From Capniomyces stellatus (lineage: Eukaryota; Kickxellomycota; Harpellomycetes; Harpellales; Legeriomycetaceae), in the NCBI GenBank assembly GCA_001661515.1, contig LUVW01000012.1, positions 186,001-250,000 of the forward strand: a stretch of DNA of 64,000 nucleotides, in the 5' to 3' direction. Of the stretch, positions 3,001 through 46,834 are shown in pieces. Position numbers and translations under genes: made by a program. The first letter of the stretch is position 1. Each line of letters starts with the position of its first letter. A model generated the notes under the pieces. The model saw only the letters and a list, made by a program, of their open reading frames with translations, had not been told where the DNA came from and did no database searches.

Positions 3001-4713
3001 ACCAACATGTATACTCTAAAACTACAACAGCTGCAACTATATCTTTACAACCAACCAATGAACCTCCAGCTATAACCTTGATTCTTGGTTATTATGGTGT
3101 TAAATATTTTATTTTTTTTGTATCAGTTTATGTTTACCTTTTCCTTAACAATTCCTTCTTTAATTCGAAACACTTGCAGAACCTTTCTTTTCGCTACACA
3201 TATTGTCAGCCCCTTCCCCACCTCTTTCTTCTTTGTGAACTTGTGCATCTGGTCTGTCGAAAAACAACTCACTCCTTTAATCGTATACGAGTCATTTCCG
3301 CGCAGCCGAGTCATGTCGTTTAAATCATACCATACCAGTGTAGAATCTAAACCACAAATTCATTTACAAAACTTTATTAGTATCCCCACATTACATAATA
3401 CCACACCATACCAAATCATATCAAATCATACCAAATCATACCATATCATACCATATCATATCACTTAGCATTGCTAAACTCTTACCTATCAAACATGCCA
3501 GCTTTCTATACTCTACAAAAACCTCAAGCTGCTCCACTTTCTTTTTTCCAAACCCTAAATTCACTCGATGTGTTTGCTCCCATCTTACCGGCCCCTCCAT
3601 TCCATACTGCACCTCTGAAACCAAATACTTGAATATCTGCCCATCATTTGTCCCAATATACACACTCTGTTCATCACAATCAAAACTCTCGATTCGTGCA
3701 TACTCTGTCGAACCTGCCCGACTGTTCCGCCTTTCCCTGTTCTCCCCACTTTCCACTTTTATCCTTGCCACTTTGTCTTGCATCATTACTTTGTCCCCAA
3801 TTTCTTCTATTTTCTTCATAATCTTCTTTGTCTCATTCTCTTTTGAACTTACAATAGATCCTCTGCTACCTTCGTCTACATCCTTATTAATAACACCAGG
3901 TTCTGCTTTGCTTCCAATACCTCCCAATTCTATCCCTTCCTCTTCATTTACTTGTTGCTCTTTTGTATCGCCCATTTCATCTTTCGCCATTTCCCCTTTG
4001 GGCATTGAAACACCTGTCTCACCAGCATCTCCACTATCTTTCTCTGCACCATCCATTTCCAGCCCCTCTTTGGCCTTCTTTTCCTCATCACCGCCTACTT
4101 TTTTCGTTTCGCTATTCGTACTCCCATCATTCACCTTAGCTCCTTCCTCACTACTTAATTCAGCATCCCCTTTGCTGCTGACTCCTAACTTCGCTTTAAC
4201 TTTTTCTTCTTGGATACCCTCCTCTTTATCTTTTGCTTTTTGTGTTGCTTCCTCCTCTTTTACGCCTCCCTCCTCAATTAAAATATTCTCTCGACCAGCG
4301 CTTTTGTCCTTTTTACCGCCGCTTGCTTCCTCATTTTCTTCATTCTTGGTTTCCTCCCTCCTCCTCCCATTATCCCCCTCCCTTAATTTAACTTTCGATT
4401 CCCTTATATTCTCTGCTTTGACCGTTCCTTCTGCACTTACTTCCAGGTCTTTTGAAACCCCTTTTGTTTCACTACTGTTCGAGACACCCTCCTTTCCATC
4501 CTCAGTTTTGCCATTATTGCTAATTATCTCTTTGCTTTGAACCTTCTCGATTCCCTGTTCCTCTTTTGCCACACTTGAAGATTCCGAGGTCTTGTAATGA
4601 TTTAATGCATCTGGAACCGATTCCCCAACCAGCTTTATGTTGCTAAACAAAGCCTGCACAATATATATGTCCAGCTTTTTTTCTTCTGCTAAATTCACTT
4701 GAGCTTTAGACAT
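1..4713 (-). CDS. VPS3: Vps3/TGFBRAP1-like CORVET subunit (3' end off window)
   Basis: Five exons with matching phases: 4713-3486, 3346-3138, 2911-2138, 1969-1693 and 1624 to beyond the left edge. The protein is about 1370 residues to the edge and still open. The start is the ATG at 4713. It has an N-terminal CNH/beta-propeller ('ESFDCDEQSVYIGTNDG' near residue 340, then 'ISVKRR'-like strand 'ICVAKRKVLQVFRIKEG') followed by Vps39-type helical repeats ('LANFKLGQLDPRGLL', 'VVDMLPDDWLVRPLTPYLK'). This order matches TGFBRAP1/Vps3, which tethers early endosomes within the CORVET complex and binds Rab5-type GTPases. Vps39/Vam6 is the main alternative, but the C-terminal part fits TGFBRAP1 better. 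Residues of about 40-335 are a Lys/Glu-rich low-complexity insertion placed before the first propeller blade. A long plus-strand reading frame across that region is only its shadow. The terminal zinc-binding segment would lie outside the window. Confidence 0.88.
1640..1695. repeat. 28-bp direct repeat inside a VPS3 intron
   Basis: Two adjacent 28-bp copies, 1640-1667 and 1668-1695, differ at two positions. Together they make up most of the 68-bp intron 1625-1692 of VPS3. The duplication overlaps the donor site, so each copy carries a GTATAA-like donor. Confidence 0.8.
3405..3464. repeat. Imperfect ATCATACC repeat in VPS3 intron 1
   Basis: Roughly ten-base units built from 'atcatacc' with variants are tandemly arranged in the 139-bp intron 3347-3485. 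No coding potential is needed to explain it. It makes the short exon-1 extension on the minus strand spuriously open. Confidence 0.7.
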
Positions 4714-5671
4714 TTCATTCTATTTTTACCAAGCGAGTAAGACTCAAAAAAAAAAACTACTGCTATTTACTTGTTCGCTGCTGTACTCGGCAACTTTTTA
4801 TTTCCTAAACTGCAAAGATGAGTAAAAGTTCAACAGAGATGAATAAGTTTGAAGTCTAAAATTAACAATACAATCATACACCGTTTTCAGAATTATAAAC
4901 CCAATTCGCCCAATTTAGCTAAATTGCCTCTAGATGAATCTTAAAATTGACTGCTTGTTTGTTTTTTAATTATTGAAACTGTCTTTTTATTTTTGTTTAA
5001 ATAATTTTCGAGCTTCCGAATTTCCCTCATTCATTCTTCTTTTCCTTTCCAGAATCCACTTTTAAATATTATCCACCACTGGTGCACAGGTAATAATCCC
5101 TGAATGTTTTGAACGTCAATATACGGGATAGCCTTGGGCTTGAGTTGGGACCTGACAAAAAAAACTCAAAGAATTGAACCGAAATTACTTGCAACTCAAA
5201 TACAATATTGCCTAGTTTTTTTTAAAGTTTTTTTTTGACACAGGACCAAGCCAAGCTTTTTTTTCATGCTTGTTGCAAGTATCAAGACATATACTAAGGC
5301 GTGGCATTTGTCTGTGATTAATTTTAAGCTTGACATTTATCAATTATACTGAACCTCAGAATACTAAATGGGTAGATTAATTGTGATACCGATTTTACTA
5401 TGATTAACTGGCGTTTACTCGCACTAGCGTATAGCAAAAAACCAACCAGAAACTTAACATGCAAATGTATGGAAATAGAAAGGAAAAATAGTACTAATAC
5501 TGAAAGAAAGCTCCACAAGGGCCAATTCCGCTTAAAAGGGAGGGAACCTAAATTGGTAGTACACTTCTCATCAACGAAAACCCTGACGATGCGTTCTGCA
5601 AGCCGGACGCTCCAGACGGTAAATATGTAGCAACATATCTAACATTAAGTACATTGGTATTTTCATTTTGT
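4714..5671. other. Intergenic, VPS3 5' flank to SFT2 3' end
   Basis: AT-rich sequence with poly-A and poly-T runs. It holds the presumed VPS3 promoter and SFT2 3' flank. A 76-codon plus-strand frame at 5400-5630 shows no family resemblance. No RNA gene was recognised. Confidence 0.5.
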
Positions 5672-8382: not shown

Positions 8383-11300
8383 GGATTGGTTGCGTGAATA
8401 TTGTGATACTGCTCTTTAATTGGCATTGATTTGGTAAATATTTAATGCAAGTTTGTTTGTGCAACTTGGTTTATATTAGTTTCAAAGGATTTGGGTCGAC
8501 AAAGAAATAGTCTGCTGGGTATTCTTAGATCAGTGCTTATCAGGCCCTTTACACTCTGCTGTCTTTGTTCTATTCTAGGATATATACACTTGTAAATAAT
8601 ATTTAACACACTTGTTTTTTTAAGACTAAACAAAAGAAAAACAACAAACCGATTAAATATTGGTTACGAGAGTCAAGGAGTTAAAATGCTATTTACTGTT
8701 AAGCAACCACTATGTAACAGCCGGTTTTACCCGTAGCAATGGCTTGCATAATCTACGAGTATAATTATGTCTATAATACCTCCTAAAGTGCTGATCCCGG
8801 TGCCTTGCTGCTCAATAGCTTTTTGGCGAAGCGGTCTGTCTAACATCTAAAAAGGGGTTTGAACAATTTCAATAAAAAAAAGGGGGGTTTGAGCAGAACA
8901 TAACTTGGTTAAGCTTGGTGTGAGTTGATAGGCCGAGTATATTTGATTAGGGATTTTATAGCGACTATCCATGTGTTTAAAATATCAACGCACTTACTTG
9001 CCTGCTAGTATGTGGCTTACTTGATCTATACCTTGTTTTTATTTCTCAGTTAAGGGGCTAGTTTAAAAATCTTGGACTTTTCGCGATTCCAGATTCTGTC
9101 AATGTGTGTTTGGCACTTTGCGTTTATGAACATTATCCTAATATAATCATTTCAAGTTGGTGCAATCTTCAAACGCCAGACCTTGTGAATAGACTTGACA
9201 TCCTTTTGGTTTCTCTTTGTTGAAATAGGATATAGATTTGTGTTTTTACAGAAATCCCGGTTAATTCTTTGTTGTTATCAACAATAATAAGTACCAAATT
9301 GGTAAACCAAGATATTAAGCCAACACAAAAACCAAGTACAGATGGGGAAATATCACTAGCCAGGTCAGTCGGTTATAGTCGGATTAACTTAGACTTAAGG
9401 TTTTATCGTTGGGCTAAACATTTTGAAGAAGAAGAAAAGTGAGAGCAATACATTAAAAGGGTGGCTTTTAAGAATTTCGGAATCTAGTTTGTGGTTTGGT
9501 TTCAAATGGATCGAATCGGTTATCTACGATTTTTGTCGATTGCTTTGTTATTGCGTTTTGGTAAAACCATCAGTATTACGAATTTGCTTTCCTCCACACA
9601 AAAATCTTGGTTGGATGGATTTTGCAATGATAAATCGCAATGTTTTAACACTTCCAAATTGGTATTGAGTAACGATCAAACAGTCTTATTTTGGATAAAT
9701 TAAATCAATTGGGCACAACATCTATTGAGCCAAATTGGCAGTTTTTTTTCAACAAAACTCCGTTTGTTTTTGTTTTTTTTTAGCGAAATAATTCATTTCG
9801 TTTTGTTTATTCAAAAATCCGTAGTATTTTCCAGATGAGTCAAGAGCTTTATATTGGAAGTTTGGCATTCGTCTTGGTAGCTGGAGCCACTTTCAATGAA
9901 ACTAGAGTCAGAAAAACGGATTCAAATGTTCTAAAGTTGAGCCAATAGCTTGATAAACACTACACCAAGCCGCTTAACGATCTACCAAGGAAACGATTCC
10001 AGAAAATATTATGCTTTCTTTTGGACTTTCTTTGGTGCAGTTGGCACAGCTTCTTTGTGTTGTTTTTTTGTAAAACTAATCTACGCATTTTACAAATCTA
10101 GTAAATAAATGATAATTAATTATAAATAGTATTCAGTACTGCCATTGCTAAGCCATAGCTTTTGCTTTGATATTTGTAATTGCTTAAAAATCATGCATTA
10201 TTCATGTTTAAGTATTTAAGCCTTTTCTAAGAGTAGAATGTCAGACGCTTTTCGACAAGAATAACTCTAGTGGTGACTATGATGATAGTTAATCACAGTC
10301 TACTTGGACTCATTTAGTAGCTTAGTGTATGTGTATATGTATGAAGTGATGTAATGATGTAGTGAGGTAGTGAGGCAGAGTTATAATATGTTGATGGTAT
10401 ACGTTTTTCTCGAGCATTTTTATCTTAGCAGCAAGCAATGAATAATTTAGTTCAAGTTATGTCGTTGAGATTATTTGGTAATAGTAAAGATTAATCAACA
10501 AGCAAGTTGGCCTAGTGGGGTAAAAAAGAAATAGTACAGTTGGTACTGGTAATGTCTTTGAATAGTGAATTTGATGATAAAACCGACTTAAACAACACTG
10601 AATTGGATTTGGTTTGGTTTGGATTTTAACATTCAAACCATCTCTAAATTAGTGAAACTGCCTGGATTGTTCTTTGTGTTGTTATTGTTGTTGTTGAATC
10701 ATCTTTGAGTTTAAAATACCAGAGTAAATAAATGTGCCAGCTTTATAAATCCAAATGTTTTAGTTGACAAAAACATAAACCTAAATGTGGTGGTGTTTAT
10801 CTAACAAAATAATACAATTTGTCCGTAAATTCTTGAAAAAAAAGGGCAGTAAAATGAAGCAAGGAAAATAGTAGTAAAAAATTTGACAATTTCTAATAAA
10901 ACGGCAGATTTTATCACCTTTTTTGCCTTATTTACTATTTATTCGAGCAAAAAAATTGGCCAATCTTGAACCTCGAAAAAAAAGAAAAGTAGCCAAATTT
11001 ATAATTAAAAGCCTGGTTGAAAAAACTAGATTTGTTTACAGCATGGAATATTACTATTTCACACATTTTTAATATTAGTGGGACGAGGGGCGGGGAAGAG
11101 AAGGGAAAAGAGGGGGGGGGGGGGGGNNNNNNNNNNNNNNNNNNGGGGGGGGGGGGGGAGTCATTTTTTCTCTTCAAATCAGCCGTGTTGACTATAATGT
11201 GGAGTTAGAAAGTAGATTAAACCCTAAAAAAAAAGTATTAGGCAGAGACATGCTCGTGTAAAGCATCAGAGTCGATGAGATTATTGGGTGTTGTAAAAAA

Positions 11301-33741: not shown

Positions 33742-35479
33742 GACGAGATTCAACTGTCTATTGGAGCCGTCTATCCTTTCATCTTTATTTTGCTTTAACA
33801 TTTATCTCTTCGTATGGCAATTAATTGGAATAGTCAAAAATATACCCGTTTGATCGGAGGATAAAGAAAAACCAGCAAGATCACAATCTAGCTATATATC
33901 TATAATACAGTGTTGGTTCGTCAATGCGTTTTTTCAAAGCATTTACAGGCGTTTCAAGACATAGAGTGTAGTGCATTGAGCCAAAACAGAGGTAAACTCT
34001 TGGCGAGCTAGTGAGGAAGAAAAAAAAAGGCAGAGCAAGCCGAGTTTTTACAGCAGTAAAAACCCCTATTTCAGCTGAGCTGAAATGGTTTTGTTACAAG
34101 ACAGTTGTGGTCGTTCTAGTAGCTAAGGCTGAATGAAGGCAGATCCAAGGCACAATAAAGCCGAGATATTACGAGCCAAGGTGACTTGTATTCTTGGGTA
34201 TTAGCAATTTGGTATTGATAAATACTGTGTTAATAAGGCTTTGTATAGAAGCCGAAGCTAATGTGGCAGAGTAAAAAATAGCTGTATTGGGAGGAGGGGT
34301 AGATACTACAAGCTAAAAGAAAAGACTGATGATGAATAAAAAAGAGCAAACAAAGTTTTTCAAAGTAAACAAGAGAAAGTAAATGAGGTCGAGGTGGTCA
34401 GATTAAATAAGAGTTTGTGTAATTTGCTTTATTTCTTTTGTGCTTATAAGTTACAAGGAAAAGCATGATAAATATTTAAAATAAACAATTGGAAATTGAA
34501 TAATAGCAAAACAAAAATAAAGGCAGGAAGAATAAATTGAAAAATGAGCAAAAATAGAAAGCGTAGTAAAAGTAAATAAAACCAAAATTGCAATGAAAGC
34601 TTGACAATAAAGTTTCTACAATTGGAAAAAACAAAAGCAAAAGCAAAAACAAAACAAAAATCGATAGAAGGAAACTTGGAGTTCAAACTTTTTTTGTACG
34701 ATACCAAAAAGAGTCTGAGAATATTTCAACACAAGCGAGCCTTTATTTTAATTTGAAAGAAGCGCGAAGTAATCAGGATATTTGAGAACCAGCTCTGTTC
34801 GACAAATAACGACTAAGGCGATAAGCGGAAAAACGAAAAAAAAAAACAAAGTAGCAAAAATAATAAAAGTACAAATAGAATTGCACCGAAACCAAGCAAT
34901 TAGTAGGAGGAAAAAAAAGCAGGCTGATAAGGTAAGTGTGTAAATTGGACGCGAATTTTAGTTCAGGTTTAGAACAGTAGAATAGGAAAATCTATGTAGA
35001 TAGAACTAGGATCAAACACACTTTGGTAATTATATGCCGGAAATAATGGTCGAAGGCATTTTTGAAATACAGAAGCGTTAATTGGTATATATATGTATAT
35101 ACAGGAGACTGGTAATTGATATTAAATAATAAAAGTAGGATATTCCTACCTTTGATAGGTTCAGGTTGGCGAAATACAAACACTTTGGCGGTGAAAGGAG
35201 GATATAGTTGTGACAGTTTATAACAGCTAATAGGTACGTTTTGTTAATAGCAAGAGTATAGATCGGAATAGTAAAGATATAATACGAGATAGTGTAGTTG
35301 AGCGAGTAAATCAAGCCAAGTTGTTTTGGCGATAAAGGGGACTTTAGAGAATTAAGGGAATAAATGGGAATGAAAAAGAATTAGTTACTTTTACTGAAAA
35401 TAAAAAAAGATTAGCTGGCGGATTTCATAAACAGAAGAGCTGATTAAACGAATGAAATATAAAAATAGATGGATTGTGT
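33742..35479. other. Intergenic ATG27-NTO1
   Basis: AT- and purine-rich on the plus strand. It holds the NTO1 leader. An upstream ATG at 35469 opens a 19-codon frame (stop ends at 35528) that overlaps the NTO1 start in another frame. No other gene was recognised. Confidence 0.5.
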
Positions 35480-38400
35480 ATGGATTATGGGAACAATCAT
35501 CAAGGCAAAAAAAGCGACAAAGAACTAGAGGGCAGAAGGATGAGGAAAAGAATGTTATCGGTTGATATAATTAAACAGACAGGAAATAAAAATGGAATGG
35601 GTAATCAAAAAGACAGTGTGCAGGCAGAGGAGAGAGATGAGTCGAACGAAGGTGAGAATAAGCCAGAAGACGAGGTGACACAGCGACAAGCAGGAAATGG
35701 AGAGAAAAAGTCGGCGGTAATGGACAGAGAAGGACAAATGGGCAAAATGACGCTTCCTAGTGTCGTTGTTAGCCCGTTAAAGGGGAGCAGAAGAGATATG
35801 AGAGGCGATTTAAACAGCCAGGGGATAGAAGGCGAAACGAATAGTGATGGTAAACTGCCAACAGTTTTAGTGAGAAATAACGGGGTGAGTAGAAGTAGTA
35901 TGAATAGAGTGACCGAGGTTTATGTTGAACAAATAGAGATCGACAAGACGGAATTAAGCAGACACAACAAGAGTCCGGAAATACAAAAAGTTGGAGGGAA
36001 AAGGGCACTGAGATTGATTGATGGGGATGAAACGGATAATGAAGAGGATTCAAAAGACAGTCACAGTGGCAAAGTAGCAAATGAGAGGAGAAATGTGAGA
36101 ATAGAGATTAATGGAGGAATGAAACCAAATGATAAGAATAAGAGGTTTAAAGCAAGCGTAGAAATAGACAGAAATGATCAATCGAGAGACTATGGCGAAT
36201 TTAAAGAGCAACTGAGCAATGAAGAGAAAGGTGAGTCGGAGGTTGAGGAGGAGTCGAACTCGCAATTGGAGGAAGATGAGGTGTCTACGGATTTAGACAC
36301 AGAGGTACTAGAAGAGTACGAATATGTGAAGTTGGATAAAAATGTTGAAGAGGAATTTAACAATGATGGAGGTGAAGTTGAAGTAAGTGAGGAGTATGAA
36401 GAGTGGGAGGAGGAAGGAGAAAAGGAAGGAGAAGAGGAAGAGGAAGAGGAAGAGGAAGAGGAAGAGGAAGAGGAAGAGGAAGAGGAAGAGGAAGAGGAAG
36501 AGGAAGAGGAAGAGGAAGAGGAAGAGGAAGAGGAAGAGGAAGAGGAAGAGGAAGAGGAAGAGGAAGAGGAAGAGGAAGAGGAAGAGGAAGAGGAAGAGGA
36601 AGAGGAAGAGGAAGAGGAAGAGGAAGAGGAAGAGGAAGAGGAAGAGGAAGAGGAAGAGGAAGAGGAAGAGGAAGAGGAAGAGGAAGAGGAAGAGGAAGAG
36701 GAAGAGGAAGAGGAAGAGGAAGAGGAAGAGGAAGAGGAAGAGGAAGAGGAAGAGGAAGAGGAAGAGGAAGAGGAAGAGGAAGAGGAAGAGGAAGAGGAAG
36801 AGGAAGAGGAAGAGGAAGAGGAAGAGGAAGAGGAAGAGGAAGAGGAAGAGGAAGAGGAAGAGGAAGAGGAAGAGGAAGAGGAAGAAGAAGGATGTGAAGA
36901 GAGGGATATGCCTGATATAATGAGCCTAGACGGTTATGAAAAGAGCGTGGATGAAGAAGGAAATGGAGAAGAGGAAGAGAGTGACAGAGAAGAGATTGGC
37001 AATGAGGAAGGGGATTGTGGAGGAGAGGAAGAGGAAGAGGAAGAAAAATTGAAAATTAACAACCAATTGAATGGGCAAGATAATGGGGACAATAAAGGCG
37101 AAATTGGTGGTGAGGAGCAACCAAAACGAAGGAGAGGAAGGCCACCAGGAATAAAAATGAAATCTAAACGCGGGGGAAGGCGGGGTAATGAGAGGGTACA
37201 GGTGAGAAGAAGAAGTTTAAGGTCAGTTGGAGCAGGGTATAGCGGCGATGAAATAGAAGGTAAGCCTAAACTCAGGAGAAGAAGCGGGAGTGGCAATGTG
37301 AGTGGAAGTGGGAGTGTAGGGGTAGAGGAGCGAATTCGATTTAAGTTTGGAGTGAGGGGAGGAATAATAAAACAAAGCAGAGATGTTAAAAAAAGCCCGA
37401 TAAAGGCGCGGCAGAAGCAGGGCACAGTGGCACGAACAGGGATTGGTAGTGGGAATTGGCGAGGGGCACGAGCAGGGATAGTATCAGGAAGAGGAGTGAA
37501 TAGTACAGTGAAGGGAGTTGGGCGAGGTCGAGGTCGAATACAGGGAAGAGAAAAGGCAATTACGAGTAATGTAGGCGTAAGAGCAAGTGGAGGTGGAAGC
37601 GGAAGAGGGAGGGGAAGGGGAAGGGGGAGGGGGAGGAGGAGGGGGAGACAGCCAATTAACAATATTGGAGTAGAAGTTGAGCTTGAAAGTGAAAGTGAAA
37701 GTGAAGGGGATGAGGATGAAGATGGAGAAAGCGGGGATGAAGAAGAAAGCGAGGATGAAGGAGAAAGTGGAGATGAAAGCGAGGATGAAGAAATTATAAT
37801 TGGAAGAGGGAGAGGGAGAGGGAGAGGGAGAGGGAGAGGAAGAGTGAGAGTGAGTGGTAGGGGACAAAGTAGAGGTGTGGGATCAGGTTTGGGGATGAAA
37901 TTAGGATTAGGGTCAGGATTAGGGTCAGGAATGAGAGTGAGAGTGGGGCTGGATAGAGGGGTTGGTAGAGGAAGGGGGCGGGGACGAGGACGGGGGCGGG
38001 GACGAGGGCGAGGACGTGGACGAGGTAGAGGAGGGTACATTGGAGGGATGGAGATGGTGTATGAAAGTGATGAAGATGAGCTATTGATGGATGTAGATGC
38101 AGGTAGCAGTGTTGGTGGCAGTAGAAAGAGGGAGGAGGTAGAAGAGATAACGGAAAAGCCAAGAGAGGAAAGAAGCTGGCAGGAATTCTTCCCGTATTTA
38201 AGGCTGGATAATAAAATGCGAGTGTTGGAGAGCTACCCTGACGAACCCGATATAGCCAGTGGCAAGAGCGAGCAGGTAGAAAATCAGGGGAGTAGAGAAG
38301 AGGCAGAAAATACAAAAGAGGGAGAAGAAATTAAAGAGATAAAAGAGGTAGAAGAGACAGTGGACAAGATGGTTAGATGGAAGCTGGGGAAGCCATTAGG

Positions 38401-41400
38401 ACTAGTTAACACCACAAGTAAGAATATATTGTACATGGTATGCAGTTAAAGATTTGAAAAATGAGTTTATATAGAGAGTTGCGTGACTAATTGGGGGAAA
38501 TTGACTGGGTAATTGAATAGGGGCCGCAATGATGCTTTCGGTTAAAAAGCCAATCCAGTCGCTGCCAAAAGCAGAATACGAGACGATAAAGTTGGGGGGC
38601 GAGAGGGCAGAGTATTTGAGACCAGAGACACACTATATAAGACATATAGGGCCGTTGGAGAGGGAGCTTTTGGAGTCAGTGGAGTATGATTTAGACGATG
38701 TGGACTACGAGTGGCTGAAACTGGCGAATGCGAAGATGGGAGAGAAGAAGGTGGAGATGAGCGAAGAGTTGCTTGAAAGTATTATAAGTCTAATAGAGAG
38801 GGAGTGGTTTGAGCTGGTCCGAGAGGTGCAACACGACATAACACAGAAGAATTTGGCGTCTTTGCCAGCAGAGGATGCGGCGTGTGCGATATGCGAGGAG
38901 GAAGAATGCGACAATAGCAACGTGATTGTGTTTTGTGACGGGTGCAACCTGGCAGTGCATCAGGATTGCTATGGGGTGCCGTATATTCCAGAGGGCCAAT
39001 GGTTGTGCAGGAAGTGTATGTTGTCGCCGGACCGAGAACCGAAATGCATATTTTGTCCCCAGCTGGGAGGAGCGTTTAAGAAAACAGCAGAGAACCAATG
39101 GGGCCATCTGCTGTGTGCGCTGTGGATTCCCGAGGTTGGGATATCCAACACGGTGTATATGGAGCCAATCGACTCTGTGCAGTTGATTCCAAAGTCCAGG
39201 TGGAAGCTAGTGTGCGGGCTGTGTGGGCTGAGAGACGGGGCTTGTATTCAGTGTTCGCATAAACAGTGTTTTATGGCGTTTCACGTGATGTGCGCAAGAA
39301 AGGCAAAGTTGTACATGAAGATGCAGATATCCAGACAGACCAAAGAGCCGATTTTTCATGTGTATTGCAACCGACACTTACCAGTAAGTTACAGATGGTA
39401 AACTATATTTCAACTGCATCAATCTACTTGATTATTTGTTTGCTCACATTTGACTATTTACGTGTGTTTTTAGAGTGGGTACGAGAAGGAGCTTGATTTG
39501 AATGCACCAAGAGCAGCGTTGGGTTTAAGTAGTTTGAACCTCGAAGTTGGAGGGGATCTGCAGGAGTGGAATGATAACACGAAGATGAAACTGAACATCA
39601 TAGACTTGACCACGGGCAGAAAAAGCAACTACTTTGGGGCCGAAAAGCCCTTATTGGCGGGCAAAAACGCAGTTGTGCCAAGCTCTGGCCACGTTTATTC
39701 GCAGATGCAGGGCAAGCCTTTGGAACAGCATTTAATCAAGCACAAGTCAAGAGGGCGGCCTAGAAAGATAAAACTGGTTGAAGAGGACCAGCAAGTGGTG
39801 AGGATTGCTAGTGATCAGGACTCAATGGCAGCCCATGAAGAGTTGGAAATTGAAGCTGGCGAAACGCTTGGAGAAGATAGGGGTGCTGTAAGAGATTTGG
39901 CAGAGGACAGCGGTAAAGAGGAGCGCGAGTCGGCGGAGGCAGAAAAGGATGCTGATGGTGCAAGTGGAAATATGTTGGCTGATAGGCCTCATACATTGGC
40001 CAGATCAGCCTCGTCGTTGGCAGCGACAATGCAGATATACTCGCCCGACTCGCCAGTGATTAACCAGTTTGTGCTGAACAGGGTGGTTCGGTACATGTCT
40101 AAAAGCACAAAGTGCTCTGGGTTTAGTAAGAACCGGGTACAATGGGCTGAGTTTGCAAAGCTGGTGTGTAGGTACTGGGCATTGAAGAGAAAGCAGAGAC
40201 AAGGTGCGCCGTTGCTGAAGAGGTTGCACTTGGAGCCGTGGTCAGAAACACTAAGCGAACTGGAGATGATTTCCGCAAAGAAACTGGAGGAGGTGACTGA
40301 CGACAGGATGAACGAGATTCTGGAGATAACCAGAAACGACCTGGTCAAGGTGCGCGAGCTGATGCAGCTGATTCTGGACCGAGAAAAGGTGGTTCTGGGC
40401 GTGGTCAAGAGGACTGTGCAGATCGCATACGATATAGTGGCCCCAATCCGCCAGCTGCTTATAGACACTCTACTGGTGCTGATTGAGAGGGATAAGCAAA
40501 ACTCGTTTCTGAAACACGTCAATGAGGACGAGGCGCCTGGGTACTTTGATGTCATAAAGCAGCCCGTGTGTTTGCAGGAAATGCTCGATCGGGCCAGGCG
40601 AATGGGCTACACCAGCATTGACCAGTTTGAATCCGACCTCAACTTGATGTGGTCAAACTGCATGGCTTACAACAAGCCCAGATCGTACCATCACAACTTG
40701 GCAAAGCGGTTCCGCCACATGACTGTTGATCTGATTGCCGATTTGAAAAGCAATTGCGATAGGCTGAACATCCCCTACAACGACGTCTCTTGCTTACCAC
40801 TAGGTCTACATTTACCCGCAAATCATGGCCCTGATTCCCAGAACACCGCAATGGACCAAGATTCTATAGAAACTGCAAACCCAACCCGTGTTTCAGCTCC
40901 AGACTCGGCCCCAGACTCGACTCCAGGTTCGGTTCCAGATTCTGGTCAGGATTCTGGTCAGAATGGCAAAGAAAATAGTAAAGCTGAAAAAATCGATTCG
41001 GTCGAGTTGTTGATGAGCCCTGAAGAAATTCAAATTGTAAATAGTAAAGTCAAGGAATCCTGGGCCAGAATTGTGTCTGTCGCCCTGGATCCTGGTCTTG
41101 ACCCAGTGCCCGAGTTTCCTAACAGGGAGATCATTGTTCAAAATGTTTATAACGAACTACATCCCCCACCCCCGCCTCCGCCCCCACCATCCCCGTCAAA
41201 ACTAAAACCGAAACCGAAACCGAAATCGAAATCAAAATCAAAATCAAAATTAAAAGCAGAATCCAAATCCAAGGTTAATGGTAAAAGCAAAGCCTCAAGC
41301 GCAACCAATGATCCAAACATCAGGGTTTTGCGTACATTGCGTGGGTTGTTAAACACGCACCCATTGCATTCAAGCAAATCCGTGCAGAGTTCAGCTAAAA

Positions 41401-42179
41401 AGAGCAGTGGAGACGTTCAATCATATTTGGACGAAAAAGCGGGTGATTTGGCTGGCCTTGGTTCTGCAGAGTCGCCTGAGATAGAGATCCAAGTGCTGAA
41501 GGAAATGCTAAAGAAAAGCAACGATTCAAACACCCAAAACTCTACAACCATTGGCGGCCGAACTTTCCGGTCGCGAAGAGTCACCAATTTTGGTGCCAAA
41601 GATAAAGACGACTTCAAGATTGTTGACATCAACGAGCTGAAATCCGGCTCTAACATCAAGGAGGAGGCGAGTGTGGAAGCGAACATAGTGGAAGAAAATG
41701 ACGGTGGTAAGATGGATGTGGATGGGCAGGACCTGGAAAAGAAAGAAGTCAGCACACACTTTTACAAGCCTAAAACCAAAAAACTTGATAAAAACTATGA
41801 GCTCAAGGACTCGTCGCCAGCAATATTTAGAGAGCCGCCAAGCCAATGGAAGGTTGGAACGCCTGTGTGGGCGTCGATGCCGTCGTTTCCATGGTATCCA
41901 GCCGAGATATATGACGGCAAGAGCAAAAAGGTGCCGAAACAGGTGCATTTGGACAAGAAGGACGAGTCGCATAGCGTGTTGGTGTTTTTTTATGATGTAA
42001 CTTTTAGCCACCGAACGTGGAAGTGGTTGTCGCCGTTTCGGTGTTTGAGGTTGGGTGTTGATGAGGAGTTGGACTTGGTTTTGAAGACTGGGAAGGGAAC
42101 TAAAAGCCACCATATGAGGCAACAGGTTGTGAAGGCGTATTATGCTGCTTGCGAGGATAATGGTTTGATACCATTATAG
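35480..42179 (+). CDS. NTO1: Nto1/BRPF-like chromatin scaffold with poly-Glu
   Basis: Exons 35480-38417, 38521-39383 and 39474-42179 give 2168 residues in phase. The first 979 residues are mostly low complexity. They include 153 consecutive glutamates (318-470), an AT-hook ('KRRRGRPPG', about 546) and long Arg-Gly arrays (about 705-725 and 774-853). Then come an Epl1-like region (about 990-1075), a PHD finger with Cys/His pattern 'CAICEEEECD', 'CDGCNLAVHQDC' (about 1101-1145) and a zinc-knuckle/extended PHD ('CIFCPQLGGAFKKT', 'FHVMCARKA', to about 1265). After these lie a second AT-hook ('SRGRPRKIKL'), a bromodomain (about 1595-1690, acetyl-lysine Asn in 'NCMAYN' at about 1667) and a C-terminal PWWP ('MPSFPWYPAEIYD', about 2060-2125). 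Nto1 and BRPF proteins scaffold the NuA3/MOZ histone H3 acetyltransferase. The architecture is BRPF1-like. S. cerevisiae Nto1 lacks the bromodomain and PWWP. It converges with RPA34. Confidence 0.93.
36431..36889 (+). repeat. (GAGGAA)n array encoding 153 Glu
   Basis: A near-perfect hexanucleotide array of about 459 bp lies inside NTO1 exon 1. Several consecutive 60-bp lines (36481-36840) are identical, showing almost no point mutation. It reads as poly-Glu in the gene frame and as Arg-Lys or Arg-Gly repeats in the other two plus frames, which are shadows. Confidence 0.97.
37595..38037 (+). repeat. Arg-Gly coding repeats in NTO1
   Basis: Purine-rich gggaga/ggacga-type units encode RG/RGR runs at about 37595-37650, 37801-37845 and 37960-38035, separated by an acidic Glu/Asp/Ser stretch. 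They fall inside the NTO1 frame. The minus-strand Pro/Leu-rich reading frames here are shadows. Confidence 0.85.
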
Positions 42180-43602: not shown

Positions 43603-45160
43603 TATATTGTGGTTTTACTCGTTTTCGTATCCGTACTCGTATTTGTTCCCGTTTCTTTTGCTTATTGCTTTTTTTGGATTTACGATTAATCTTTGCAAGA
43701 TTTTCAAAAATAAATAAAAAGAATTACTTTCAGCGCTATACTGTATATTAACCAATTTTTTTTTTAAACGTTGAATTTACATATTCACTTTTTTTTTCTT
43801 GAAAAAAAAAAAAAGTTTTTAGCTTTAAATTAGCTTTTATTGAATTGAATTAATTCCAAACAAAAATTCGATTCGATCATTTAGCAACCTTATTGAGTTA
43901 CTTTTTTCATTTCCAATTTCGCTCGATTTGCCATACTCTCACCAGCTACGAATAAAACGTTAACAAAAACAAACTTGGTTTACCAATCCATAAACCAAAG
44001 TTATTCGTTAAATAAATCGCCAACTTGCCTGCCAATGCAATAAAAACAAACTCTTGACAGTTATGGGTATTGCCTATTAACAAACCAGAGTTCCCGAGTA
44101 GCTTTACTAACATTTTGAAGATCCGCTAAACTCTACAAAAATTCACAACAACGCACGTTATTTAAAGCGTCTTACTAGCTAACAGCATTGTCCTTCATCA
44201 ATTTAAGCAAAGTTGCTTTACTGATAGTAAACTCATTTATTTTAAATGGTTAATCCAACATGCCGTTTAACACCATACTGCTGGATTAGCACGAGCCGCA
44301 TGATTTACAAGCAACTTTGTTTGTATTCCGGCGTTCTTCGCGAATTAAGAAAATTTGTGGCAGATGATTTTTCTTTGATTGTTGTTAATTCAGCAGGGGG
44401 TTTTTTTTCTTCAATAATTTGCAACTATTAAAATCCGAGTTTAAATCTACCAGTTGCAAATAATGGAATAATGGAATGGTGGAACAGCTCAGAGAAACTC
44501 ACCAACATTGACTTGGTGAGTTGTAAAACCTCGATAAAGTTTTTTACTAGTTGGTAATTAAACTCGAGGCATTGCACTGGTACTTTTGAAAAGTTAATAA
44601 ATAGAACAAGTAGGAAAATCTACTGAATTAACACATCAACACAAACACAAGGGATAATTATGACAATTATAGGCGCGTTTCCAGTGATTATAGCAAAGGA
44701 ATAGCAGCGGTGTACATTAATGATAAATGATAAATCTTGTCTAAGCCAAATGAAGGGATTTGTGTGAGATTCATTATACTCGAGTTGAACATCAGATTAT
44801 CTGATTTATAGGATACCACAAGATACTACACTGAACAAAGTAAACCAATGTGGGTATCAAGTTGGTTTAAAAGAATTGTAGATGCAACAGCAAATTGCGA
44901 GGATAGCCCAAGTATAACCACACTTTTAAAGCACAATTTAAATTGTAGTAGAGTCAGTAGTCACAGCAATAAAACCAAGTTACAGAGTTGCAAATATATT
45001 ATATACTGAGAATATCAAATGCGGGCTTTAAATTGTTTTTTGAATATATAAACGAGGAACAGCTACCCAAAAAAAAAGTGTGAGTGATAAATCAATCAAT
45101 TACTTTTTATTAATCAAAAATATTACCCTATTTCAATAATAAAAAGTATATTACCCTGCC
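43603..45160. other. Intergenic between divergent RPA34 and secreted-repeat gene
   Basis: AT-rich with homopolymer runs. A 61-codon frame at 44246-44431 has no recognisable features. A TATA-like box is annotated separately near 45043. Confidence 0.45.
45042..45052 (+). promoter_or_regulatory. TATA-like box upstream of Cys-repeat gene
   Basis: The sequence 'aatatataaac' lies 109-119 bp before the ATG at 45161, in the right place for a core promoter. This is based on sequence and position only. Confidence 0.35.
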
Positions 45161-46834
45161 ATGACTTCTTTAAAGCTACTGCTGATAGCAGCTGTTATTG
45201 GCGTTTGTACGAATACGTACTTGGTCGATTCAAGACCAGTAAACAGAGACGTCACATTTGAAGCAAACACTCTTGAGAAACGCCAGGAGTGTAGGGGGCC
45301 TAATAATTTTAGGAGGTATTCCAGTTGCGTCAGAAGGCATCCACCAGGAGTTTGGCTTAGCCCATCAAGGAGTCAGATATGTAGATGCGCCTTAAATGGC
45401 TGTGAAAGCTGCACAGACATTTCATCGGTAAAGTGCGTAAAAGGGAGAAGAAATCGTATGCTTGAGATAGCCTGCAACTTGAAACATCCAGGAGGAAGAT
45501 GGTTTGACCCGAAAGACAACTCAAACTGTAGATGCACTGATGACGGATGTGAAACTTGTGTTCCAAGACCGTCAGGTCGATGCATCGAGGGTGTTCCTAA
45601 CCCCAGGCTTGAAGCAGCATGCAAAGCGGCCAACCCAATCAGCCCATGGATTGAGGGTGGCAAGACTTGTGTGTGTGCCACTTCAGGCTGCAAATCCTGC
45701 AGAACCCAGACATTGACTGACTGTGTTGTAGGAAAACCAAACACATACCTGGCAGCTTTGTGTAGGAGAGCCCATGGAAATGGCGAGTACATTAACGGTG
45801 CAAACACGTGCAAGTGTCTTGATTCAGGCTGCTCGGATTGCAGCCCAACCCCACCAGCCCAATGTATCGAAGGCGTTCCTAACGCTGTCCTCGAGGCAGC
45901 ATGTAAAGCGGCCAACCCAATCAGCCCGTGGATCGAGGGTGACAAGACCTGTGTATGTGCCACATCAGGCTGCAAATCCTGCAGAACCCAGACATTGACT
46001 GACTGTGTTGTAGGAACGCCAAACACATACCTGGCAGCTTTGTGTAGGGGAACCCATGGTAATGGCGAGTACATTAACGGTGCAAACACGTGCAAGTGTC
46101 TTGATTCAGGCTGCTCGGATTGCAGCCCAACCCCACCAGTCAAATGCATTGAAGGCGTTCCTAACGCTGTCCTCGAGGCAGCATGTAAAGCGGCCAACCC
46201 AATCAGCCCATGGATCGAGGGTGACAAGACTTGTGTATGTGCCACTTCAGGCTGCAAATCCTGCAGAACCCAGACATTGACTGACTGTGTTGTAGGAACA
46301 CCAAACACATACCTGGCAGCTTTGTGTAGGGGAACCCATGGTAATGGCGAGTACATTAACGGTGCAAACACGTGCAAGTGTCTTGATTCAGGCTGCTCGG
46401 ATTGCAGCCCAACCCCACCAGCCAAATGTATTGAGGGCGTTCCTAACGCTATTCTTGAGGCAGCATGCAAAGCAATCAATATAATCAGCCCGTGGATCAA
46501 GGGTGACAAGACCTGTGTATGTGCCACATCAGGCTGCATTGTTTGCAAACCTTTATCATCAGGATGTACACCTAAAGTAAGTAATCCAGGAGGGCAACAG
46601 GCTTGCGAGTCTCTTCACGCAGGAGGCCAGTGGATCAATGATAAGAACGAACAGTGTACTTGTGGAAGCGATGGGTGCGATGCGTGCAAGAACGTGAATG
46701 CTAGTTGTGCGTCTGGATCAAATAGCTTTATCAGAGAGAACGCTTGTAAGGGAATCAATTCATTATCCAATTCGTGGACCTTTGCAGGACTACAATGCAA
46801 GTGCCTCAAGGATGGATGTGTGTCGTGTGTTTAG
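45161..46834 (+). CDS. Secreted protein of eleven six-cysteine modules
   Basis: One intact exon encodes 557 residues. A signal peptide (about 1-24) and a Lys-Arg pair at residues 40-41 ('TLEKRQEC'), a likely Kex2 site, precede eleven modules of about 44-47 residues. Each has six cysteines in the pattern C-x(8-12)-C-x(13-19)-C-x-C-x4-C-x2-C, usually with an aromatic residue (Trp or Tyr) between the second and third Cys and Gly before the fifth. Modules 3-8 alternate two types ('CIEGVPN...SPWIEG...CVCATSGCKSC' and 'CVVGTPN...GEYINGANTCKC'), so two modules make a 282-bp higher-order repeat. I do not recognise the family. The form resembles secreted, disulphide-rich adhesins or wall proteins, but this is inference. 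A long minus-strand frame across it is a shadow of the repeats. Confidence 0.85.
   Translation: MTSLKLLLIAAVIGVCTNTYLVDSRPVNRDVTFEANTLEKRQECRGPNNFRRYSSCVRRHPPGVWLSPSRSQICRCALNGCESCTDISSVKCVKGRRNRMLEIACNLKHPGGRWFDPKDNSNCRCTDDGCETCVPRPSGRCIEGVPNPRLEAACKAANPISPWIEGGKTCVCATSGCKSCRTQTLTDCVVGKPNTYLAALCRRAHGNGEYINGANTCKCLDSGCSDCSPTPPAQCIEGVPNAVLEAACKAANPISPWIEGDKTCVCATSGCKSCRTQTLTDCVVGTPNTYLAALCRGTHGNGEYINGANTCKCLDSGCSDCSPTPPVKCIEGVPNAVLEAACKAANPISPWIEGDKTCVCATSGCKSCRTQTLTDCVVGTPNTYLAALCRGTHGNGEYINGANTCKCLDSGCSDCSPTPPAKCIEGVPNAILEAACKAINIISPWIKGDKTCVCATSGCIVCKPLSSGCTPKVSNPGGQQACESLHAGGQWINDKNEQCTCGSDGCDACKNVNASCASGSNSFIRENACKGINSLSNSWTFAGLQCKCLKDGCVSCV
45581..46543 (+). repeat. 282-bp coding tandem repeat, about 3.4 copies
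   Basis: Units start at 45581, 45863 and 46145, with a partial fourth from 46427. Units 2 and 3 are nearly identical at the nucleotide level, including silent sites. The flanking first, second and last modules are much more diverged. Each unit encodes one pair of six-Cys modules. Confidence 0.9.

What the first reader, a model, noticed from the sequence alone, without database searches (positions are those of the whole stretch)
36431..36889. 153 consecutive glutamates in an NTO1/BRPF-type chromatin scaffold
The array is a near-perfect (GAGGAA)n repeat of 459 bp inside the open frame. Homopolymeric acidic tracts of this length are rare in any protein. The lack of silent or missense change points to recent expansion or ongoing slippage. 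An acidic block beside Arg-Gly arrays in a histone-acetyltransferase scaffold could bind histones or drive condensate formation. It would also make length variants between strains likely.
Basis: partly seen in the sequence, partly recalled or inferred. Interest (0 to 1): 0.8.

Follow-up and report, generated by a model that had tools for sequence, protein, structure and literature searches.

The report
Glutamate repeat in fungal Nto1 gene
A gut fungus gene for a histone-acetylation scaffold protein contains a long run of glutamates made by a repeated six-letter DNA unit; the gene and run look real, but the run is longer than the short DNA reads probably used to assemble it, so its length is unproven.

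Summary
The letters are as described: 36431-36885 is a 455-bp perfect six-base repeat, read as 153 Glu codons to 36889. The gene call is right too: proposed ATG 35480, three exons, 2168 aa, EPL1-like + PHD-ZnK-PHD + bromodomain + PWWP. The exon holding the repeat ends in KPREER.W.EFFP, which Smittium orthologues carry ahead of the same domains and yeast Nto1 has at its start (weak alone). So it is an N-terminal extension of Nto1/BRPF. In 163 listed homologues the longest Glu run is 11.

The main correction concerns length. Size, GC and N50 (595,855; published 596 kb) point to the Capniomyces stellatus draft, built from 2 x 125-base Illumina reads. No such read spans 455 bp. The same assembly writes a telomere-type six-base loop as 558 perfect bp beside a single N. 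So '153' and the perfect purity may be partly assembler-made, and purity cannot date the expansion. A real, translated slippage array in a presumably disordered extension is likely. A histone-binding or condensate role is untested. Interest is modest.

The parts
35480..38417 (+). exon 1 of NTO1: N-terminal extension (presumed disordered) with poly-Glu, RGRPP motif, Arg-Gly blocks, ending soon after the conserved KPREERSWQEFFP motif
   Evidence: open frame, stops in frames 0/1/2 = 0/73/93; start ATG chosen by resemblance to two Smittium N-termini, 6/300 and 3/300 shuffles as good (suggestive only)
36431..36889 (+). 153 Glu codons (aa 318-470); 36431-36885 perfect period-6 (GAAGAG)n
37133..37150 (+). 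RGRPPG, AT-hook-like motif (aa 552-557); RGRPR stands in the extension of one Smittium orthologue (P0004)
   Evidence: the label AT-hook is recalled
37601..37648 (+). Arg-Gly block 1 (9 Arg), pure purine DNA
37802..37843 (+). Arg-Gly block 2 (7 Arg), pure purine DNA, period 6
37964..38035 (+). Arg-Gly block 3 (11 Arg)
38153..38194 (+). EKPREERSWQEFFP (aa 892-905), conserved first motif of Nto1
   Evidence: KPREER identical in four Smittium and one Mycoemilia protein; yeast Nto1 from residue 11 (3.7 bits, weak on its own); one loose expression fits 96 of 163 homologues, another 61 of 120
38418..38520 (+). intron 1, GTAAGA...TAG, phase 1 (predicted)
   Evidence: Smittium proteins are continuous across it
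38521..39383 (+). exon 2: EPL1-like domain and PHD-ZnK-PHD (PZP)
39384..39473 (+). intron 2, GTAAGT...TAG (predicted)
39474..42179 (+). exon 3: bromodomain and PWWP

Best explanation
It is an in-frame hexanucleotide (GAGGAA) slippage array in the long, lineage-specific and presumably disordered N-terminal extension of the fungus's Nto1/BRPF orthologue, the scaffold of a MYST histone acetyltransferase complex (NuA3/MOZ type). Because the unit is six bases, gain or loss of copies keeps the frame and only changes the number of glutamates, so the array can grow in a region that tolerates it. The gene model and the open frame are well supported by sequence; slippage as the cause is inferred from the strict GAG-GAA alternation; the copy number is not established (inferred real length above roughly 100 bp, upper limit unknown). 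If the protein is made as written, the block adds about -153 charge, which the 27 Arg of the Arg-Gly blocks cannot balance. The likeliest effect (inference, weakly held) is a generic electrostatic one: competing with DNA for the protein's own basic and DNA-binding parts and attracting basic partners such as histone tails.
For: Array and frame. Gene identity: EPL1, PHD, PZP, bromodomain, PWWP; the four best homologues are Smittium proteins, three of them given the name Peregrin by at least one source; solved BRPF1 and yeast NTO1 match; the Smittium proteins carry the exon-1 motif and the EPL1/PZP part in one chain. Lineage-specific: longest Glu run 11 and longest Asp/Glu run 22 in 163 listed homologues, Glu runs 3-4 in the four Smittium ones. 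A second gene (SPRY-LisH-CTLH) has a 20-Glu run and six-base dipeptide arrays in its N-terminal extension. Charges.
Against: No cDNA, reads or protein data. Exact length rests on a short-read assembly. A genome-wide leaning to six-base repeats did not hold: 15 of 32 perfect short-period repeats in the sample have period 6, but 11 of those 15 lie in the window and in L022, a region fetched for its array; elsewhere it is 4 of 17. The charge effect is tested by nothing here; disorder was not predicted with any tool. Exon 1 also holds splice-like sites that could in principle excise the array in frame (36231-36929).
Confidence: 0.7

Rival explanations
1. The length is an assembler artefact: the real array is much shorter or of quite different length, and the short-read assembler walked the six-base loop several times before leaving it. 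(This can be true together with the best explanation, which does not claim the length.)
For: Genome held: 59 contigs, 24,510,316 bases, N50 595,855, sampled GC 37.8%, against the Capniomyces stellatus draft: 72 scaffolds, 24.8 Mb, N50 596 kb, GC 37.8%, Illumina 2 x 125. A telomere-type loop is written as 558 perfect bp starting right after a single N. No other perfect repeat (period up to 40) above 51 bp in the 21 sampled regions, and no (AT)62 or (GAA)20 genome-wide as held. Both long arrays are near the 500-bp paired-end fragment size; n is two.
Against: The array leaves into unique sequence without N on both sides, so paired reads may have supported about this length. An array well under 125 bp should have been read through correctly (inference). 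How the assembler treats such loops was not found in print (no hit) and is from knowledge. That the two assemblies are the same is inference: 13 scaffolds are not held here.
Confidence: 0.45
2. The array is real but removed from the mRNA as an optional intron (36231-36929), so the protein has no poly-Glu.
For: Consensus-like donor AAAG|GTGAGT at 36231 and a branch-like CTGAT with acceptor CCTAG at 36929, same phase.
Against: The stretch is open in the coding frame (0 stops) but has 7 and 13 stops in the other two frames, as expected for coding DNA; 699 bp against 103 and 90 bp for the two clear introns; exon 1 has 13 donor-like sites besides this one and the true one, so one in phase is no surprise.
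Confidence: 0.08
3. A selected acidic domain: the poly-Glu block is kept long because it serves the acetyltransferase scaffold, for example as a histone-tail sink, DNA mimic or condensate driver with the Arg-Gly blocks.
For: Position in a histone-binding scaffold; acidic context around the array (17.0% Glu before, 13.3% after).
Against: None of 163 listed homologues has such a block; the codon pattern is that of a DNA repeat, not of mixed codons; the charge is far from balanced by the Arg-Gly blocks.
Confidence: 0.15
4. Exon 1 is a separate acidic/Arg-Gly protein gene just upstream of NTO1.
For: Exon 1 and exon 2 are in different frames, and each frame meets a stop between them.
Against: A phase-compatible GTAAGA...TAG intron joins them; the end of exon 1 carries the motif that Smittium and yeast proteins have ahead of EPL1/PZP.
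Confidence: 0.04

Closest known systems
Nto1 (yeast NuA3) and BRPF1/Peregrin; Smittium Peregrin-like proteins
   Same: EPL1-like domain, PZP, bromodomain, PWWP as in the Smittium proteins, and the KPREER-type motif
   Different: about 890-residue N-terminal extension with poly-Glu and Arg-Gly blocks; in yeast Nto1 the motif is at residue 11; Smittium extensions are long too (motif at 426-559) but their Glu runs are 3-4
Repeat-encoded single amino-acid tracts in other proteomes (PMC5125637)
   Same: tri/hexanucleotide repeat in a coding exon giving one residue
   Different: the section read names runs above 100 residues for Gln (163), Asn (117) and Asp (120, 144), none for Glu, and sea urchin as holder of the longest Glu run without its length; the list is not said to be complete and the heat map was not seen
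RPGR ORF15 exon (search listing with starts of abstracts)
   Same: highly repetitive, purine-rich exon; acidic product (recalled)
   Different: unrelated protein; Glu-Gly mix, not pure Glu (recalled)
Acidic tails of HMGB1, nucleolin, histone chaperones (recalled)
   Same: long acidic disordered stretch in a nuclear protein
   Different: those have tested autoinhibition or histone binding (recalled); here none is tested

Membership tests
Nto1/BRPF scaffold | EPL1-like domain | tested here: met
   PF10513, 7.3e-13
Nto1/BRPF scaffold | PHD-zinc knuckle-PHD module | tested here: met
   PF13831, PF13832; BRPF1 and NTO1 structures
Nto1/BRPF scaffold | bromodomain and PWWP (as in BRPF and many fungal homologues) | tested here: met
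   PF00439, PF00855
Nto1/BRPF scaffold | N-terminal KPREER..(F/W/Y)..F(F/Y)P motif joined to EPL1 | tested here: met
   Smittium and Mycoemilia proteins; yeast alignment 3.7 bits alone but in the right place; here the join depends on a predicted intron
Nto1/BRPF scaffold | binds a MYST acetyltransferase, Eaf6 and an ING protein | not testable with these tools
   described for yeast Nto1 in passages of PMC12789522
Repeat-encoded amino-acid tract | tract made by one repeated DNA unit | tested here: met
   alternating GAA/GAG over 455 bp as assembled
Repeat-encoded amino-acid tract | length varies between individuals | not testable with these tools
   one assembly held
Acidic histone-binding domain | long acidic run | tested here: inconclusive
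   present in the assembly, length doubtful
Acidic histone-binding domain | binds histones | not testable with these tools
   none

The most novel reading that the evidence does not exclude
The array is truly about 150 or more pure glutamates, among the longest single-residue runs in any protein and longer than the Asp runs named in the survey section read here, and works as a length-tunable acidic arm on a histone acetyltransferase scaffold, so that repeat slippage changes chromatin acetylation between strains of a gut fungus.
Probability: 0.1. Interest if true: 0.6.

Novelty: new member of a known kind. Interest (0 to 1): 0.27.

Why it matters
If the length is real, it would be an extreme natural case for how much homopolymeric charge a chromatin scaffold tolerates, and a simple system for repeat-length effects on histone acetylation. 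As it stands, it is also a warning that perfect coding repeats longer than the reads in draft genomes cannot be counted or dated from the assembly alone.

Tried and rejected
Rfam on the window: no match. DNA fold of the first 100 bases of the array, + strand only: no structure; triplex or quadruplex forms were not tested. A protein search with the poly-Glu region scored nothing (1742 candidates, none at E <= 10), so it says nothing on how rare such runs are. No structure prediction was run. Paper searches on long amino-acid runs led to PMC5125637; others on long Glu runs, acidic autoinhibition, assembler loops and acidic Nto1 gave nothing I used. That no paper describes this array is not claimed.

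N-terminal alignment to Smittium is only suggestive: 6/300 and 3/300 shuffles as good for two species, but a non-equivalent alignment to Mycoemilia also gave 4/300, and two Smittium proteins gave none (180/300, 253/300). An out-of-frame codon count for exons 2-3 was discarded and redone. In one search some N-terminal columns are empty where my anchor expression failed; the Glu-run figures do not depend on it. A first reading that this genome leans to six-base repeats was dropped on recount, and confidence in the best explanation was lowered from 0.72 to 0.70 for that.

Full report
What is in the sequence. The window has a perfect period-6 repeat at 36431-36885 (455 bp), and 36431-36889 reads as 153 Glu codons, GAA and GAG alternating until the last three, all GAA. 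It lies in an open frame of 997 codons. Over exon 1 (35480-38417) that frame has no stop while the other two have 73 and 93. Five GAGGAA in a row occur at one other place in the 24.5-Mb genome as held (72 matches, 71 of them overlapping in this array; the backward control pattern gave 6). In the window plus 20 fetched regions, 241,530 non-N bases, the next longest perfect repeat of period up to 40 is 51 bp; one of the 20 regions read N throughout and two others in large part.

What gene it is. A GTAAGA...TAG intron, 38418-38520, joins them in phase; a second intron is 39384-39473. The joined product has 2168 residues and one stop, at the end. It has EPL1-like, PHD, PZP, bromodomain and PWWP domains. 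Near the end of exon 1 stands EKPREERSWQEFFPYL. KPREER followed by a W..(F)(F/Y)P pattern stands in all four Smittium proteins, at residues 426-559, ahead of the EPL1/PZP part (PF10513 is precomputed for three of the four), and KPREERSYVDFFP in Mycoemilia. Yeast NTO1 has KLREEKHFQDFYPDL from residue 11 (3.7 bits, weak alone). One loose expression fits 96 of 163 homologues, another 61 of 120; I did not inspect the misses. So the array belongs to NTO1, in an N-terminal extension of about 890 residues. Proposed start: ATG 35480, because the first residues resemble two Smittium N-termini; the shuffle control is only suggestive.

Relatives. Homologues listed were the best 120 of 3135 (only the 7993 candidates sharing most words were scored) and the best 120 of 895 (query P0006 residues 560-1000, which admits longer proteins), 163 distinct in all. 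Longest Glu run 11, longest Asp/Glu run 22. The four Smittium proteins have Glu runs of 3-4. I saw no Zancudomyces, Furculomyces or Capniomyces name in the two listings, so the nearest relatives may not be covered.

Which organism, and why it matters for the length. The four best hits are Smittium, Harpellales. The genome held has 59 contigs, 24,510,316 bases and N50 595,855, and GC 37.8% in the sampled regions. The published Capniomyces stellatus draft has 72 scaffolds, 24.8 Mb, N50 596 kb and GC 37.8% (PMC4974312, whole text; 24.85 Mb and 37.82% in PMC5954228, passages; also named as the best Harpellales assembly in PMC10386755, passages). I take them as the same assembly, with 13 scaffolds not held here; this is inference. 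That draft was made from Illumina 2 x 125-base reads, a 500-bp paired library and mate pairs, with Ray and SSPACE. The window itself has an 18-N gap inside poly-G. No 125-base read crosses 455 bp. An internal control agrees: the one telomere-type array found by (TTAGGG)8 is 558 bp of perfect repeat, starting directly after a single N and passing into degenerate units. So the two long perfect six-base arrays known here are 455 and 558 bp, near the paired fragment size; two cases are few. (AT)62 and (GAA)20 gave no match. I conclude that the array probably exceeds about 100 bp but that 153 Glu and its perfect purity are not established. Against an artefact, the array leaves into unique sequence without N on both sides. 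Assembler behaviour is from knowledge; a search for it found nothing.

How it arose and what it may do. Alternating GAG-GAA over the run is the mark of a DNA repeat, not of codons selected one by one. Six-base units keep the frame. Whether the genome as a whole leans to such repeats is not shown: 15 of 32 perfect short-period repeats in the sample have period 6, but 8 of them are in L022, fetched for its array, and 3 in the window; elsewhere 4 of 17. L022 does hold a second case: a gene with SPRY, LisH and CTLH domains whose N-terminal extension has a 20-Glu run and other six-base dipeptide arrays. The same purine hexamer read in another frame gives Arg-Gly, and two of the three Arg-Gly blocks of NTO1 are pure purine DNA; that these acidic and basic blocks share one mutational source is a hypothesis. 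Exon 1 without the array is 75% purine on the coding strand against 59% for the core. Net charge is -153 for the run, +8 for the stretch between it and the motif, -188 for the whole protein, and the Arg-Gly blocks hold 27 Arg, so internal neutralisation would be incomplete. Binding of basic partners or shielding of DNA-binding parts is plausible from known acidic tails (recalled) but nothing here tests it.

Could the array be spliced out? A donor at 36231 and an acceptor at 36929 share a phase, but this stretch is open only in the coding frame (0 against 7 and 13 stops) and would make a 699-bp intron beside introns of 103 and 90 bp. I hold this at 8%.

Comparison. Nto1 in yeast is described as EPL1-like, PZP and a C-terminal helical domain (PMC12789522, passages). 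For runs of one residue, PMC5125637 (section 20 and passages) names runs above 100 for Gln, Asn and Asp, none for Glu, without claiming a full list. A true 153-Glu run would therefore be notable, but the length must be measured first. Verdict: a known kind of repeat in a known protein family, with a correct gene call and an unproven length.

Noticed in passing
window 45614-46538: 282-bp unit repeated about 3.3 times at 94% matches inside an open frame (45143-46834 +, 563 aa); one sub-threshold Pfam match only
   Followed up: partly
L022:3891-7616 (G000 C22): SPRY-LisH-CTLH protein (RanBPM/Gid1-like, name recalled) with an N-terminal extension of 20-Glu, Leu-Asp, Glu-Lys and Gly-Lys arrays; 8 perfect six-base repeats in this region
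   Followed up: partly
G000 C58:11152-11709: telomere-type array inside a 649-kb scaffold, starting right after a single N: likely a contig end joined by the scaffolder, possibly a misjoin
   Followed up: partly
window 34001-39000: purine-rich + strand (0.65, 0.67, 0.86, 0.78, 0.67 per successive kb) that begins about 1.5 kb before the proposed start codon, against 0.52 for the window
   Followed up: no
window 11127-11144: 18-N gap flanked by poly-G on both sides
   Followed up: no
window 3439-4719 (-): 427-aa open frame, 71% purine, 15.9% Glu, no Pfam match
   Followed up: no
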